A stretch of 33,186 nucleotides of DNA from a virus. A program made the position numbers and the translations under genes. Under the pieces are notes generated by a model. It was not told where the DNA came from, did no database searches, and was given only the letters and a program-made list of their open reading frames with translations. Location: positions 1 to 33,186 of IMG/VR virus record IMGVR_UViG_3300034523_000298; one strand, 5' to 3'. This document shows positions 1-32,422 of the stretch, in pieces. Each line of letters starts with the position of its first letter. Positions within the stretch are counted from its first letter, which is position 1.

Positions 1-108
1 GACCCACTTGCGAATCGTGTTGCGCGCCAACCCGGTGCGCTTGGCTATCTCATGCAGCGACAGCTTGTCGCGGAAATACATCCGGCGAATTTTGCCCATC
101 ATTTCCAT
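1..108 (-). CDS. istA: IS21-family transposase IstA, N-terminal fragment
   Basis: Thirty-six codons read on the minus strand from ATG at 106-108 and continue off the window edge. The peptide starts MEMMGKIRRMYFRDKLS and runs on through a helix-turn-helix (HEIAKRTGLARNTIRKWV), the N-terminal DNA-binding segment of IstA. IstA is the DDE transposase of the IS21 family and normally works with the ATPase helper IstB, which is not in view. The truncation is caused by the window edge, so nothing can be said about whether the element is intact. Confidence 0.8.
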   Translation of the reverse strand, partial: MEMMGKIRRMYFRDKLSLHEIAKRTGLARNTIRKWV

Positions 109-161
109 ACTGATCACCCTGTGTTTTCCTGCTCAAAAATTGAGCAGAAGCAGTTGAACAC

Positions 162-213
162 CTGGGTCAGTTTTCAGTCGGCAGAACAGCCTCTACTGGG
201 TCAGTTTTCGGTC
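162..213. repeat. IS21 terminal direct repeats
   Basis: Two copies of CTGGGTCAGTTTTC(A/G)GTC lie at 162-179 and 196-213 with one mismatch, 34 bp apart and close to the inferred element tip. IS21-family ends carry such repeated transposase-binding sites. Confidence 0.75.
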
Positions 214-230
214 AGCGGCAACAATCCAAC

Positions 231-464
231 ATGATCAATCACCCAAAAGCGCAAGAGCAACGCTGGGTGGCCATTCATCGACTGGATACAGATGGTGATG
301 CTGAGTGGGCCGAGATCATGCGGATTCTGGAGGAGACTGACGGTCTGGAGATCACGCAGCTTGAGGACGGTGGAACAAAAATCGAATGGGAAATGCAGAG
401 CGAAGACGACCGAGAGGCACCGCCTGAGGAGCTGGAGGCGCTGGAAGAAGAAGCCCCGTTCTGA
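231..464 (+). pseudogene. DUF1654 family protein, 5' end probably removed by IS21 insertion
   Basis: The 77-residue reading frame shows the DUF1654 signature: INHPKAQEQRWVAIHRLD, then W..I...LEETDGLEIT..EDGG.KIEW, followed by an acidic tail rich in Glu. DUF1654 proteins are small pseudomonad and phage proteins of unknown function. Family members normally have about 20 to 30 residues (a Tyr/Leu-Gly-Arg-Val helix) before the point where this frame begins. Here the IS21 tip ends only 8 bp upstream, and there is no Shine-Dalgarno sequence before ATG 231, so this Met is probably internal to the original gene. It lies downstream of and convergent with the repressor gene. Expression from an IS-borne promoter is possible but nothing shows it. 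Confidence 0.6.
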
Positions 465-494: not shown

Positions 495-1376
495 TCAGGC
501 TTTTTTTGCATTCCAGATCAGCAGGACCTTCGCGTGGATCGTAACGTCATCGATCCTGGCCTGCTGGTCTTTGTGTTTCTCGTTGTCGGAAATTAGCCAG
601 AAGTGGTCTTCATCGAAGAACTGCAGGCGCTTAATGTAAAGATGGCCGTGCCAGGTCAGGACGTAAATACCGTCTCCGACGAACTCGTTTACCCCGCGGT
701 CAACGATTAGCGGGTCTTTGTCGTTGATCGTGCCCTCCATGCTCTGCCCCCAGCCGAATATCATGGCCAATGCAGATTGGGAGGTATAGCTGACCCCTTT
801 TTCGTGCAGAACTGACTCCTTGACGATCACGTTTCGCATGACTTCGGTGTAGTCGGGAGGTACCTGTCCGTGCCCCATCGAAGCGCGTATGTCGTACTGT
901 GGGATGAAGATCTCGTCCTTCTTCACTTTCAGGCCTGAGAAATCTGCAGATACGACATTGCTTGGGCGTTCTTCGACCAGGGAGTCTGCAACTGCGGCCG
1001 CGATCTTCTGCTGGGCGTCCTCGTCCAGCTTCTTGCCGGCGTGCTTTTTCAGCATCGCCATTACCTTTTCTGCCGCGCCTTTCTTGTGGTCCTGATCACC
1101 GGTCGGAAGCGAGCGCAGCGATCGAATTTCGTCCGCCAGCCGCGGGCTGAACTGTTCGACAGGAACCTCCAAAAGCCTGGCCAGTACGGCTGCGAACTTT
1201 GCATTCAGTGGGTTGAGACCCTTGAAATAGAGGTTTACCGCAGCTGGTGTAATGCCGGCTTCGTCCGCGATTTTCTTCTGACTGAGCTTCAGATCGTTCT
1301 TGCGAGCGAGGAAAAGCGCGTGTGCCGCTTCGCATTCAGCCAGGCGGTCGGGAGGAAGGATTCGTTTCTTGGTCAT
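495..1376 (-). CDS. CI-like prophage repressor, HTH plus S24 peptidase
   Basis: This is the lysogeny repressor. Residues about 8-75 form an XRE/Cro-CI helix-turn-helix (LKLSQKKIADEAGITPAAV). The C-terminal half is an S24 (LexA/CI) domain with nucleophile Ser212 in GQSMEGT and general base Lys249 in LYIKRL, 37 residues apart as in LexA. RecA-stimulated self-cleavage, and so SOS induction, is expected. A textbook Ala-Gly cleavage pair is not visible; the likely cleavage region is RASMGHG. The start chosen is ATG 1376 (MTKKRIL). A slightly longer version from 1394 is possible. There is no Shine-Dalgarno before 1376, but a TATATG -10 box ends 8 bp upstream, which fits a leaderless mRNA like lambda PRM. 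The gene is divergent from cro across the operator region. Confidence 0.92.
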   Translation of the reverse strand: MTKKRILPPDRLAECEAAHALFLARKNDLKLSQKKIADEAGITPAAVNLYFKGLNPLNAKFAAVLARLLEVPVEQFSPRLADEIRSLRSLPTGDQDHKKGAAEKVMAMLKKHAGKKLDEDAQQKIAAAVADSLVEERPSNVVSADFSGLKVKKDEIFIPQYDIRASMGHGQVPPDYTEVMRNVIVKESVLHEKGVSYTSQSALAMIFGWGQSMEGTINDKDPLIVDRGVNEFVGDGIYVLTWHGHLYIKRLQFFDEDHFWLISDNEKHKDQQARIDDVTIHAKVLLIWNAKKA

Positions 1377-28273: not shown

Positions 28274-28911
28274 TGCTCATTACCGAGCAGCAACTGCTGC
28301 AGATCCTCCCCAAAGCCCGCCCAGTTGCGGGCATTTTTTTGCCTGCGCTAAACCGGGCCATGGCGCGCTACAGGATCGATAGCCGGGTGCGCCAGGCGGC
28401 GCTCCTGGCCCAAGTTGGGCACGAGTCGGGGCAGCTGCGGAACCTGGTCGAGAATCTGAACTATGGCGCCGAAGGCTTGGCCGCCACCTGGCCCGGCCGG
28501 TACCGATGCGCCGACGGCAAGCCGAACGCGAAGGCCGTCAGCCTGGCGCGCAAGCCGGAAGCGATCGCAAACGATGCCTATGCCGGTCGCAACGGCAACA
28601 TTCACCCGGGTGACGGCTGGCGCTTTCGCGGGCGCGGCCTGTTGCAGGTCACTGGACGGGCGAATTATGCCGCCGCCGGCGCGGGCCTGGGCCTGCCGCT
28701 GGAAGCTGAGCCGCAACTGCTCGAGCAGCCGGAGCACGCTGCCATGTCCGCCGCCTGGTGGTGGGCGAAGCATGGCCTGAACGAGCTGGCCGATGCCGGC
28801 CGCTTCCAGGACATCGGAAGCATCATCAACACCGGCAAGACCGGCCGCGCGCCGCACGGGGCCGCTGAGCGCAAGGCACTGTATGATCTGGCGCTGCGGG
28901 TGCTGGCGTGA
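28273..28911 (+). CDS. Endolysin, glycoside hydrolase family 19
   Basis: The 212-residue protein is a GH19 (chitinase-like) muramidase-type lysin. The catalytic region is LLAQVGHESGQLRNLVENLNY, with Glu51 as probable acid and Glu60 in the second conserved site. WRFRGRGLLQVTGRANYAAAG follows near 115-135, the strongest family signature. It has no signal peptide, so it needs the holin at 6640 to reach the wall. It is followed by the spanin pair, overlapping by 4 bp. Confidence 0.92.
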   Translation: MLITEQQLLQILPKARPVAGIFLPALNRAMARYRIDSRVRQAALLAQVGHESGQLRNLVENLNYGAEGLAATWPGRYRCADGKPNAKAVSLARKPEAIANDAYAGRNGNIHPGDGWRFRGRGLLQVTGRANYAAAGAGLGLPLEAEPQLLEQPEHAAMSAAWWWAKHGLNELADAGRFQDIGSIINTGKTGRAPHGAAERKALYDLALRVLA

Positions 28912-29432
28912 TCAGCGGGCGCATGGCGGGTGCTGCTGTCACCCTGGCGCTGTTGGTCGCTGCTTACTGGGGCGCCTATCAGCATGGGCGCTCGACCATG
29001 GATGCGGAGTGGCAGGTCAAGAGTGCGAAGCGGGATGAATCATTTCAGCGTGAGCGAGAGGCTGCTGCTGTAGCGGTGATCGACTGGCAGAGTGCCGAGC
29101 AGGCCCGGCTTCGGGCCCTTGAAAACCAATTGCAGGCCAATGACAGGTCGCACCACCAGGAACTGTCCAATGCTCAAAGAAACCAGGATCGCCTGCGCGA
29201 TCGCCTCGCTACTTCTGATCTCCGGCTGTCAGTCCTACTCGCCGCCCCGGGTAGTGGCGGTGGGGTGCCAGCCAGCGCCGGCACCGGCAGCGTGGTTCAT
29301 GGAGCCGCGCGAGGCGAACTTGACCCAGCGGCTGCTCAACGAATTGTCACCATCGCCGGGGATGGTGACCAGGGACTGACTGCGCTTAAGGCCTGTCAAG
29401 CATACATTCAGGAGTTAAGTAATCAGCGATAG
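28908..29432 (+). CDS. Rz-like inner membrane spanin
   Basis: The 174-residue protein has one N-terminal membrane anchor (about residues 6-23, MAGAAVTLALLVAAYWGAYQ) and a long charged periplasmic coiled coil (about 35-110) that should span to the outer-membrane partner. The start chosen is GTG 28908, overlapping the endolysin stop (GTGA), with ATG 28923 as alternative. The gene contains the Rz1-like gene in another frame, which is characteristic of spanin pairs. Confidence 0.85.
   Translation: MISGRMAGAAVTLALLVAAYWGAYQHGRSTMDAEWQVKSAKRDESFQREREAAAVAVIDWQSAEQARLRALENQLQANDRSHHQELSNAQRNQDRLRDRLATSDLRLSVLLAAPGSGGGVPASAGTGSVVHGAARGELDPAAAQRIVTIAGDGDQGLTALKACQAYIQELSNQR
29170..29379 (+). CDS. Rz1-like outer membrane spanin lipoprotein, nested in Rz
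   Basis: In the +1 frame within Rz, 69 residues begin MLKETRIACAIASLLLISGC. This is a lipoprotein signal with lipobox LISGC, lipidated at Cys20. The mature part is short and Pro-rich (PAPAPAAW), typical of Rz1. It would join Rz across the periplasm to disrupt the outer membrane in the last lysis step. It lies entirely inside Rz, as in lambda. Confidence 0.85.
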   Translation: MLKETRIACAIASLLLISGCQSYSPPRVVAVGCQPAPAPAAWFMEPREANLTQRLLNELSPSPGMVTRD

Positions 29433-29534: not shown

Positions 29535-30023
29535 TCAGCGTGCCTGAATACAGGCATCGATTCTGTCTGTGATGTTCTCTAATTCCTGAACTACATATTC
29601 AGGCGACCAGTGCCTTGACGCCATGAGAGGCCTACCTTGGTTGCCATCGTTGATGTAATTAAGGCGGTCGAAGGTGTAGACAGAGCTGTTGTCGCCGTGG
29701 ATGTTGAGTGAGTATCTGAAGGCCTTCGACATTCCGATCGCGGCAAAATAGAAGGAAGCTTTGCCTGATACCTGGATTGATCGACCTGTTTTCACAGGGA
29801 TGGCCTCAATATCGTTGATCTGACTTTGGGCGCAGTCGGCTCGATCATCGGCACTGGCTGCTGCCGGTCTGCTGAAGGTGACGGAGGTGAGGATTGGGTA
29901 TCCGTCCGGACCCATTGCCGTTTTTACACCCGGATTGCCAGCGATTGCCGGTGACACGGTAGTAGTGCCGCATCCGGTTAGGGCAGATGCCAGCAGTAGA
30001 GTAGCCGCAAGGGTGAGACGCAT
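29535..30023 (-). CDS. Lipoprotein, candidate lysogenic-conversion gene
   Basis: The 162-residue protein has a clear type II signal (MRLTLAATLLLASALTGC, lipidated at Cys18). The mature part has Cys residues near 65 and the C-terminus (DRADCAQSQ and DRIDACIQAR) that could form a disulfide, and no recognised enzyme motif. It is read leftward, against the late genes, and so belongs to the genes that can be expressed from the prophage. Small phage lipoproteins such as Llp and Cor block receptors against superinfection; a similar role is only a suggestion here. No gene is seen in the 100 bp between Rz and this gene. Confidence 0.72.
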   Translation of the reverse strand: MRLTLAATLLLASALTGCGTTTVSPAIAGNPGVKTAMGPDGYPILTSVTFSRPAAASADDRADCAQSQINDIEAIPVKTGRSIQVSGKASFYFAAIGMSKAFRYSLNIHGDNSSVYTFDRLNYINDGNQGRPLMASRHWSPEYVVQELENITDRIDACIQAR

Positions 30024-30110: not shown

Positions 30111-30428
30111 TCAACCTCGGGTGTCCGGCGCGGTAGGCATAGAGCCCCAGGTCGGTGATGGGCCCTTCATCTGCTGGTTCGCCAACTTGGTGTTCTCAAC
30201 GTGCGCGTCAGACAGGGCCCATGTCAGTCGCTCGTTCAGTTCATTCAGCTTGCTGATCTGGGCCGCCTGGTCCTGGTGGATTTCCACCAGCTTCTCGACG
30301 TTCTCTCTGGAGCGGTCAAGCTCGAGCCGCAGCTGATCGCATTCGGCTTCGACCAGGCGTGCGTGCTGGCGCAACATTTCAATGGGCGTAGGCATGCCCA
30401 GCGCAAAGCCGTCGTCTTCGATGTTCAC
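30111..30428 (-). CDS. SOS-box-controlled coiled-coil protein
   Basis: From GTG 30428, 105 residues are encoded, almost all in one coiled coil (about 20-85, with heptads in LRQHARLVEAECDQLRLEL and KLNELNERLTWALSDAHVE). The C-terminal tail contains Pro and Thr. AGGTGG lies 5 bp upstream of GTG, and a near-perfect LexA box begins 17 bp upstream. ATG 30395 is an alternative start. It is transcribed toward the lysis genes on the minus strand. LexA control suggests it is produced on DNA damage, at the time of prophage induction. An antirepressor or SOS-linked role is possible but not shown. Confidence 0.68.
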   Translation of the reverse strand: MNIEDDGFALGMPTPIEMLRQHARLVEAECDQLRLELDRSRENVEKLVEIHQDQAAQISKLNELNERLTWALSDAHVENTKLANQQMKGPSPTWGSMPTAPDTRG

Positions 30429-30445
30429 GATGCCACCTATTTGTA

Positions 30446-30461
30446 CTGTTTGGATATACAG
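30446..30461 (-). promoter_or_regulatory. LexA (SOS) box
   Basis: On the minus strand the site reads CTGTATATCCAAACAG, CTGT-N8-ACAG with A+T-rich centre, within TACTGTATATCCAAACAGTA. It matches the gamma-proteobacterial LexA consensus in both half sites and lies 17 bp before the start of the coiled-coil gene. Confidence 0.8.
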
Positions 30462-30562
30462 TAATCGAGGCGCATGGTTCTGGCCAGCCCTTGGTGATGA
30501 GCTGTAAAGGGGGAATTGTGTTTGGTCGGCAGGACGCCGGAGGAGGGTGGTGGCCCTGTCTA

Positions 30563-30703: not shown

Positions 30704-31150
30704 TCAAAGTAGCGCAGGAGCAAGCAGGATTGAGGTCTGCCCCAAGTATGACCATGCCGCAGCCGCAAAAGCGATCATCCCTACCCAGAAAGCGGCCAGC
30801 CCAGCCAAGCCAATTGTCCAGGCACAAATATCCCACCACACAGAAAATCCCCAGTCCTTGTCCTGCTCAATGGCTGCTCGCCAGCGTTCGCCAATCACAT
30901 AATCTCTGGCGAGTACCACAACGAGAGCAAGGGAAAATAGCAGCATCGAGGCAGTTAAACTGATCCAGGCCCATCTGGCCGACAGCAGAATTTCTGATGG
31001 GAGACCGATTGTCCCTGAAAAGAAGGCGGAACAGGTGGCGAGTGCGCCGCCGCTGAGCACGAATAAAAGCTTGATGATTTCAAGCGCGTACTTGAGTGTG
31101 GCTTTTTGGTGTTCGTCGTGCCTCGCTACTTCTTTGTCATCCCATGCCAA
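30704..31150 (-). CDS. Small membrane protein, function unknown
   Basis: The 148-residue protein has a charged N-terminus (DDKEVARHDEHQK) and probable membrane segments at about 26-46, 57-81 and 107-138, the last long enough for two short spans. The start is TTG 31150, since no in-frame ATG is near and GGAG lies 8 bp upstream. It is the last gene before the attachment core and reads leftward. Small membrane proteins in this place often act in superinfection exclusion, but no such family is recognised here. Confidence 0.65.
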   Translation of the reverse strand: MAWDDKEVARHDEHQKATLKYALEIIKLLFVLSGGALATCSAFFSGTIGLPSEILLSARWAWISLTASMLLFSLALVVVLARDYVIGERWRAAIEQDKDWGFSVWWDICAWTIGLAGLAAFWVGMIAFAAAAWSYLGQTSILLAPALL

Positions 31151-31339: not shown

Positions 31340-31400
31340 ACGGTCTTGAAAACCGTCGATGGGCAACTATCCTAGAGTTCGAATCTCTACGCTTCCGCCA
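31340..31400 (+). other. Attachment site core: 3' half of tRNA-Ser(UGA)
   Basis: The fragment has a complete anticodon arm (ACGGT-CTTGAAA-ACCGT, anticodon TGA), a long variable arm (GATGG-gcaa-CTATC), a perfect T arm (TAGAG-TTCGAAT-CTCTA), the acceptor 3' strand CGCTTCC and encoded CCA. No matching acceptor 5' strand GGAAGCG or standard D arm lies upstream. Phages and islands that use tRNA genes carry exactly such a 3' half. The integrase gene starts 110 bp further on and reads toward it. Confidence 0.75.
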
Positions 31401-31405
31401 CATTC

Positions 31406-31510: not shown

Positions 31511-32422
31511 CTACTTGGTGGGTTTCGCCAAGGCTCCAACTCGACGATAAACCCGCTCGGTAATGTCGCCCTTCGTGTGCCCCAGCAACAGGCTGGCGTG
31601 GTCGACATCGGTGATTTCCGAGGCCGCTTTAGGGCGGATATCTCGGAACTGGAACTGGCTGATACGGCCGGCCAGGACCTGGTCACCGGCGGCAACTGCT
31701 TCCTTCACTGCGTCCTCCCTGGCATCGTCCCAGCGATGGCGAAGCATCGCAGCCGTGACCCGTTTGCCTGCATCGGTCAGGATGAGGTACGGGGAACTGT
31801 GACTAGAGTTGCGCTCCAGAATTTTCCTGATCAGCTTGCCCAGCCCGCTCTCCACACCATCCACTTCAAGCATGATGCGAAGCTTCTTGTGGGTCTTCTT
31901 TTGTTTCACGCCGAGGGCCTTGTCCTCGATATCGTCCCGCCTCATCACCAGCACGTCTGCCGGACGCTGGCCCGTCAAATACGCCAAGTCCATGGCAACC
32001 TTCAGTTCATCCACCGCCTTGGCATAGACAGCCTTCCAGATTGCATCGTTCGCGTAGAAGTCACGGGGTACTTCCTTGTTCTTGCGCACGCCCTGACAAG
32101 GGTTCTCTCGGCTTGTCAGCCCCCATTCCCGAGCGATGTTGAAGACGTGGGAGAGGGTTGCGATCTCGCGGTTGGCCCGCACCTTCGCGCTCCGGGCGTC
32201 TCGGTACTGGGCGACTTGCGCCGGCGTGACGCCATCAATGGGCGCTTTCTCGAAGTACGTCCGCAACTGGCGAATTTCGGCCAGGTTGTCTTTCTGGGTG
32301 CGCGGCGCCTTCTTCGGGATGATGTCGCGCTCGTACCGGTCGAAGATCGCGCCCATGGTCACCAAGTCCTTCGGCTTTTCCTTCGCTTCTAGCTCAGCCC
32401 ACTTCAGCCGGGCCAGGCTCAA
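31511..32422 (-). CDS. int: Tyrosine integrase, N-terminal domain missing
   Basis: The 303 residues comprise the core-binding domain (about 20-105) and the catalytic domain. Arg is in YLTGQRPADV and in FRDIRPKAASE, where the usual His is Arg, as in some phage integrases. His is in LLGHTKGD and the nucleophile Tyr in ERVYRRV. The frame extends upstream of TTG 32422 as GEWSLPLGTD, which reads like the end of the arm-binding domain. It then meets an in-frame TGA at about 32453-32455, and no integrase sequence lies beyond. Full-length relatives have some 40 to 60 more residues. The gene reads toward the tRNA fragment, as lambda int does toward attP. It may be inactive. Confidence 0.75.
   Translation of the reverse strand: MSLARLKWAELEAKEKPKDLVTMGAIFDRYERDIIPKKAPRTQKDNLAEIRQLRTYFEKAPIDGVTPAQVAQYRDARSAKVRANREIATLSHVFNIAREWGLTSRENPCQGVRKNKEVPRDFYANDAIWKAVYAKAVDELKVAMDLAYLTGQRPADVLVMRRDDIEDKALGVKQKKTHKKLRIMLEVDGVESGLGKLIRKILERNSSHSSPYLILTDAGKRVTAAMLRHRWDDAREDAVKEAVAAGDQVLAGRISQFQFRDIRPKAASEITDVDHASLLLGHTKGDITERVYRRVGALAKPTK

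What the first reader, a model, noticed from the sequence alone, without database searches (positions are those of the whole stretch)
30111..30461. LexA box drives a coiled-coil gene in the prophage right arm
Seen: CTGT-N8-ACAG 17 bp before a GTG start with a good ribosome site, read against the late genes. Known: LexA-controlled phage genes such as 186 Tum and Gifsy antirepressors link induction to SOS. This phage also appears to have a RecA-cleavable repressor, so the gene would be a second SOS input or a damage-timed effector.
Basis: partly seen in the sequence, partly recalled or inferred. Interest (0 to 1): 0.7.

Follow-up and report, generated by a model that had tools for sequence, protein, structure and literature searches.

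The report
Damage-switched gene family in Pseudomonas phages
A small phage gene in this sequence sits behind a genuine DNA-damage switch (a LexA site); about nine in ten of its relatives, in phages and other mobile DNA across Pseudomonas, keep that switch, so it marks an undescribed family of damage-triggered proteins whose task is still unknown.

Summary
A LexA operator, TACTGTATATCCAAACAGTA (30463-30444, minus strand), lies 17 bp (core to start) before a GTG gene of 105 aa (30428-30111) that runs against the late genes. The core alone could be chance. The 20-bp match is not. Conservation settles it: 92 of 100 loci encoding relatives have an exact CTGT-N8-ACAG within 40 bp upstream, as do 31 of 40 members fetched after a profile search (within 45 bp). 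In 7 Pseudomonas genomes chosen because they carry the family, 17 of 41 strong LexA boxes sit in front of it.
The protein is a conserved N-terminal motif plus one long helix, with no convincing Pfam, PHROG or NCBIfam match. In relatives it sits at the attachment-site end beside the lysis genes, often followed by a SRAP repair gene, which the window lacks.
This phage group has a separate LexA-boxed gene, DUF1654, whose KT2440 member PP_3901 is reported to be needed for damage induction. In the window DUF1654 is truncated by ISPst3. I favour a damage-timed effector on a host target. LexA binding, induction and target are untested.

The parts
30444..30463 (-). LexA operator TACTGTATATCCAAACAGTA (core 30446-30461)
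   Evidence: conserved upstream of relatives
30433..30438 (-). ribosome-binding site AGGTGG before the GTG start
   Evidence: read from sequence
30111..30428 (-). 105-aa gene, GTG start: conserved N-terminal motif (FALGMPTPIEM) then one long helix; member of an undescribed Pseudomonas family
   Evidence: only weak coiled-coil matches
29535..30023 (-). 162-aa ORF next downstream on the same strand, lipoprotein-like start; possible cargo of the same transcript (unproven)
   Evidence: no relative in 37 other loci; a weak terminator-like site lies between
30704..31150 (-). 148-aa ORF upstream of the box, same strand
   Evidence: relative in L039
31341..31401 (+). 3' part of a tRNA-Ser-like sequence, the likely attachment core; also found in L004, L034 and L035
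   Evidence: no whole tRNA by ARAGORN; tRNA identity read by eye
31511..32422 (-). tyrosine integrase, 73% identical to that of phage PseuP_222
28270..28911 (+). endolysin, converging on the gene
28908..29432 (+). Rz-like spanin, converging on the gene
495..1376 (-). CI-like repressor, HTH plus Peptidase_S24; Ser/Lys motifs present, no Ala-Gly in the cleavage region
231..464 (+). DUF1654 ORF (PP_3901 family) lacking its first 10-12 profile positions and its LexA-boxed leader
1..226 (.). end of IS21-family element ISPst3 (istA start on the minus strand) joined to the DUF1654 ORF

Best explanation
The gene is a LexA-repressed accessory gene of a temperate Pseudomonas phage. In the lysogen, host LexA sits on TACTGTATATCCAAACAGTA just upstream of the GTG and keeps it off. 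After DNA damage RecA drives LexA self-cleavage and the gene is expressed while the cell decides between repair and lysis. The product is a small, probably dimeric coiled-coil protein whose conserved N-terminal half (residues about 9-50) binds a host target shared across the genus; the variable C-terminal helix gives dimerisation or specificity. In many relatives the same promoter probably also serves a SRAP abasic-site repair gene, so the likeliest role is to modulate the host damage response (repair, replication restart or division) for the prophage, not to inactivate the phage's own repressor. Shown by sequence: box, gene, conservation, neighbourhood, coding selection. Inferred: LexA binding, induction, dimer, host target, effector role.
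For: Box next to the gene in 92 of 100 loci (35 of 37, 56 of 62 at 15-25 bp) and in 31 of 40 members fetched after the profile search. Of 108 exact cores in the 917,821 bases of the 100 loci, 92 are at the family gene. 17 of 18 family places taken from 7 genomes have a strong box, and these are 17 of the 41 strong boxes there. Columns that were not selected for are also conserved in 58 dereplicated promoters, e.g. A at -4 and T at -2 in 58 of 58, C, T and C at -8, -7 and -6 in 55 of 58 each. SRAP directly downstream in 42 of 89 subfamily A loci. Phages with different repressor classes carry the gene. A separate LexA-boxed DUF1654 gene in 8 of 31 records.
Against: No binding or expression data. 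8 of 100 loci and 9 of 40 further members lack an exact box in range. Subfamily B, the window's, has SRAP adjacent in 0 of 10. The window repressor lacks Ala-Gly, so in this phage an antirepressor would have something to do. N-terminal conservation is partly built in: the scans looked for those peptides. No promoter was found by consensus. Databases only offer generic coiled coils. 23 of the 32 records other than KT2440's show no DUF1654 (some are fragments), so DUF1654 cannot be the trigger everywhere.
Confidence: 0.55

Rival explanations
1. LexA-controlled antirepressor: after damage the protein binds the CI-like repressor and triggers induction, as Tum, AntC, GfoA and GfhA do.
For: LexA box outside the immunity region, small protein, window repressor without an Ala-Gly dipeptide; known kind (abstract and passages of PMC3121763).
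Against: 12 of 18 readable repressors of family-bearing phages keep Ala-Gly; 8 of 31 records also carry LexA-boxed DUF1654, which already fits that role; the N-terminal half is conserved across unrelated repressor classes.
Confidence: 0.2
2. The box is real but the protein is mainly the leader of an SOS-driven cargo site; selection keeps the promoter for downstream genes (SRAP, other accessory genes; here a lipoprotein-like ORF).
For: SRAP directly downstream in 42 of 89 subfamily A loci; other same-strand ORFs downstream in L045, L054 and L083; Dam-like methylase nearby in some, on the other strand.
Against: The protein itself is under purifying selection, and the window's downstream ORF has no relative in the other 37 loci compared.
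Confidence: 0.2
3. Chance LexA-like palindrome before a spurious ORF.
For: The core alone appears in 22 of 100 shuffles.
Against: 0 of 100 shuffles for the 20-bp site; conservation upstream of relatives; dN well below dS.
Confidence: 0.03

Closest known systems
PP_3901 of Pseudomonas putida KT2440 (DUF1654, PF07867)
   Same: Small Pseudomonas prophage gene with an exact LexA core 19 bp before its GTG; a truncated relative is in this window.
   Different: Unrelated sequence (no family match at E <= 1 in that prophage record). PP_3901 is reported, via PMC4595014 citing Abella 2007, to be needed for damage induction of prophage genes; nothing is known of the present family.
LexA-controlled antirepressors: 186 Tum, N15 AntC, Gifsy GfoA/GfhA
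   Same: LexA-controlled small phage genes outside the immunity region (PMC3121763, abstract and passages).
   Different: No DinI match in Pfam or NCBIfam scans; found in phages with repressors that look cleavable; a separate candidate inducer coexists in some.
SRAP / YedK / HMCES (SOS response-associated peptidase)
   Same: Frequent downstream partner, 42 of 89 subfamily A loci; SRAP in temperate phages is noted in PMC3765255 (passages).
   Different: Different protein; no SRAP next to the window gene. The word coiled occurs 0 times in that paper's main text.
DinI homologues of enterobacterial prophages
   Same: Damage-timed small protein; in Gifsy phages the first gene of a LexA-regulated unit (PMC3121763 passages).
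   Different: No sequence relation detected.

Membership tests
LexA regulon | operator matching the gamma-proteobacterial LexA consensus | tested here: met
   20-bp site with 3 mismatches, 0 of 100 shuffles
LexA regulon | operator conserved upstream of homologues | tested here: met
   92 of 100 loci, 31 of 40 profile-found members, 17 of 18 places in 7 genomes
LexA regulon | LexA binding and damage induction | not testable with these tools
   needs gel shift and expression data
Tum/Gifsy-type antirepressor | LexA-controlled gene outside the immunity region | tested here: met
   box at 30444-30463; repressor at 495-1376
Tum/Gifsy-type antirepressor | cognate repressor not RecA-cleavable | tested here: inconclusive
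   window repressor has Ser/Lys motifs but no Ala-Gly; 12 of 18 family-phage repressors have Ala-Gly
Tum/Gifsy-type antirepressor | DinI-like half, as in Tum | tested here: not met
   no DinI match in Pfam or NCBIfam at E <= 0.1
Tum/Gifsy-type antirepressor | binds and inactivates the repressor | not testable with these tools
   needs binding assay
PP_3901 / DUF1654 | DUF1654 domain | tested here: not met
   gene 30111-30428 has no DUF1654 match; the window's DUF1654 is 231-464
Rz-like spanin | spanin domain, lysis cassette position | tested here: not met
   only phrog_13 at E 0.0027 over the helix; the window's Rz is 28908-29432 on the other strand
SRAP operon | SRAP gene directly downstream | tested here: not met
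   met in 42 of 89 subfamily A loci; 0 of 10 in subfamily B including the window

The most novel reading that the evidence does not exclude
A genus-wide, mobile-element-borne protein family unrelated to any known SOS protein is installed behind LexA boxes across Pseudomonas, so often that in carrier genomes it owns around two fifths of the strong LexA sites. Its conserved N-terminal half targets one universal Pseudomonas protein of replication, repair or division, making prophage cargo a large part of the host's SOS response.
Probability: 0.4. Interest if true: 0.78.

Novelty: new variant of a known kind. Interest (0 to 1): 0.6.

Why it matters
SOS regulons of Pseudomonas are described as small: a review passage gives 15 genes for P. 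aeruginosa (PMC13114513). If a prophage-borne family holds 17 of 41 strong LexA sites in 7 carrier genomes, the damage response of environmental pseudomonads is shaped by their phages. The family also gives a clear test of what a prophage wants done to its host between damage and lysis. The pairing with LexA-boxed DUF1654 makes the two roles, trigger and effector, separable by deletion.

Tried and rejected
Single-sequence scans of genome contigs and viral contigs with the window protein found no relative; an alignment with three phage relatives was needed. Plasmids gave no match to the PseuP_222 relative. Rfam found nothing at gathering scores. Pfam Med9 and CENP-F, PADLOC LmuB, PbeC and JetC, the PDB matches (designed coiled coils, CP12, prefoldin) and the PHROG spanin were rejected as generic helix similarity. 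Antisense control of the lysis genes was considered and not pursued: a terminator-like site at 29556-29541 (minus) lies before the spanin. I suspected PP_3901 was a family member; it is not. Repressor class against DUF1654 presence gave Fisher p = 0.13, not significant, and some rows are near-copies. A fold search was not run: one helix would match anything.

Limits of counts. One search found 203 of 398 genomes at E <= 1e-3; many sit near 1e-4 and are probably coiled-coil noise. One search found 1 of 194 genomes of the order at E <= 1e-7, the centre genome itself. The 40 places were picked by me's listing: 27 with E between 2e-16 and 3e-11 (19 with an exact box in range) and 13 stronger (12 with one). 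The 7 genomes were picked because they had family hits; strand duplicates were merged by hand, and two matches (a third in G281, not listed, and one in G002 at E 5e-4) were left out. In one search, 18 of 22 repressors could be read by the script. Start codons were chosen by script, partly by nearness to the box, so distances (not box presence) lean on that choice. The record searches left out some virus loci of the family (L002, L014, L017, L026, L035, L039) and all loci of genome contigs.

Literature. Searches listed no paper whose title or abstract start describes this family; the library holds open-licence papers only. Read: passages of PMC3765255, PMC3121763, PMC2647930, PMC10305613, PMC4595014 and PMC13114513. 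Abella 2007 was not held and is known here through passages of PMC4595014 and recall. That IMG number 637000222 is KT2440 is recalled; that L177 holds PP_3901 rests on two published primers matching it exactly.

Full report
What is there. The window is an IMG/VR virus record of 33,186 bases. On the minus strand a site TACTGTATATCCAAACAGTA (30463-30444) is followed by CAAATAGGTGGCATC and a GTG start at 30428; the frame is open to 30111, 105 aa. The site is the only exact CTGT-N8-ACAG in the window. The core alone is not remarkable (expected 0.28, present in 22 of 100 shuffles), but the 20-bp form was reached by 0 of 100 shuffles. The gene opposes the endolysin and Rz spanin and lies near a tRNA-Ser 3' piece (31341-31401) and an integrase on the minus strand (31511-32422, 73% identical to that of phage PseuP_222). 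In the isolated phage PseuP_222 the integrase, the same tRNA piece and the relative of our gene come in the same order.

The protein. No library gives more than generic helix matches. AlphaFold predicts one helix from 15 to 87 (pLDDT 82, pTM 0.45). Conservation over 55 aligned sequences is highest in residues 9-29 and falls off after 50 (3.4, 2.8 and 1.9 bits for 9-29, 30-50 and 51-87). Part of this is ascertainment, since the scans looked for N-terminal peptides; more distant members found by profile vary there. dN is 0.14-0.16 and dS 0.71-0.96 against the 7 relatives compared.

Relatives and the box. Three phage relatives all had the box. An alignment led to 34 virus loci and 62 loci in Pseudomonas genomes. 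Exact boxes: 35 of 37 (L008 begins at its gene, L023 has none) and 57 of 62, 56 of them 15-25 bp from the start (L060's is 132 bp away). Together with the window, 92 of 100 loci have a box within 40 bp of the gene, and of 108 exact cores in 917,821 bases 92 are those. Among 58 dereplicated promoters, positions outside the half-sites are also conserved, notably CTCGATTA before the core. From a 398-genome profile search I fetched 40 places: 31 have an exact box within 45 bp, three more within 53 bp, three have a one-mismatch site, three none. In seven carrier genomes 17 of 18 family places have a strong box, and these are 17 of the 41 strong boxes. A draw of 194 genomes of the order gave only the centre genome at E <= 1e-7.

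Neighbourhood. The spanin cluster was found within about 6 kb of the gene in 65 of 99 loci clustered. SRAP follows directly in 42 of 89 subfamily A loci and 0 of 10 subfamily B loci; the window is B, and one locus (L101, a broken copy) was unclassed. Host genes beyond the gene differ between loci. Of eight divergent places read more widely, some look like other mobile contexts: L198 beside a DNA methyltransferase-like gene and a very large ORF, L199 after what look like the pheT-ihfA-merR genes, L201 beside an endolysin-like ORF (gene names by eye, from recall).

A second LexA gene. PMC4595014 (passages) reports that PP_3901, a prophage gene of P. putida, is under both LexA proteins and needed for damage induction of other prophage genes, citing Abella 2007. 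Its published primers led to L177. PP_3901 is 86 aa with an exact box upstream, is not a member of our family, and is DUF1654. The window has a DUF1654 ORF at 231-464, 31% identical over 59 residues, lacking the first 10-12 profile positions and preceded by 226 bases that are 99.6% identical to ISPst3 copies. Nine other DUF1654 copies, PP_3901 among them, all have an exact box 3-22 bp upstream; 8 of 31 family-bearing records carry one. So part of this phage group has two LexA-boxed genes, one in the early region and one at the far end; in the window's record the first has lost its leader.

Which function. If the coiled-coil gene were the antirepressor, its conserved half should follow the repressor. 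It does not: 18 readable repressors fall into several classes, 12 with Ala-Gly and 6 without, the window among the latter. DUF1654 fits the trigger role better where present. This makes a host-directed, damage-timed effector the best reading, with SRAP neighbours hinting at repair. It is inference; the protein's target is unknown. The antirepressor is not excluded for this phage, whose repressor lacks Ala-Gly and whose DUF1654 is cut.

Verdict.

Noticed in passing
window 231-464; L179-L187: DUF1654 (PF07867, PP_3901 family) has an exact LexA box 3-22 bp upstream in 9 of 9 copies read besides the window's; 5 of 6 Ala-Gly-less repressor phages carry it against 4 of 12 others (p = 0.13). It may be a widespread LexA-controlled prophage inducer of Pseudomonas.
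   Followed up: partly
window 1-226: The window starts inside an ISPst3 end (IS21 family) fused to the DUF1654 ORF, removing its leader and LexA box.
   Followed up: yes
L004 5965-6303 (OP626800): The relative in PseuP_222 is annotated as minor tail protein, though it lies next to SRAP on the strand opposite the tail genes. In PseuP_224 the gene appears split over the two record ends.
   Followed up: partly
L034 4573 relative to the gene start: An exact LexA core lies about 110 bp before a SRAP gene that is not next to the family gene, so SRAP may have its own box.
   Followed up: no
L198, L199, L200: Divergent members lie outside obvious prophages: beside a DNA methyltransferase-like gene, after an ihfA-like region, and beside a UvrA-like gene (names by eye).
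   Followed up: no
window 29535-30023 and 30704-31150: Two ORFs flank the gene on the same strand, a lipoprotein-like one and one with a relative only in L039 among 37 loci; neither has a confident family.
   Followed up: no
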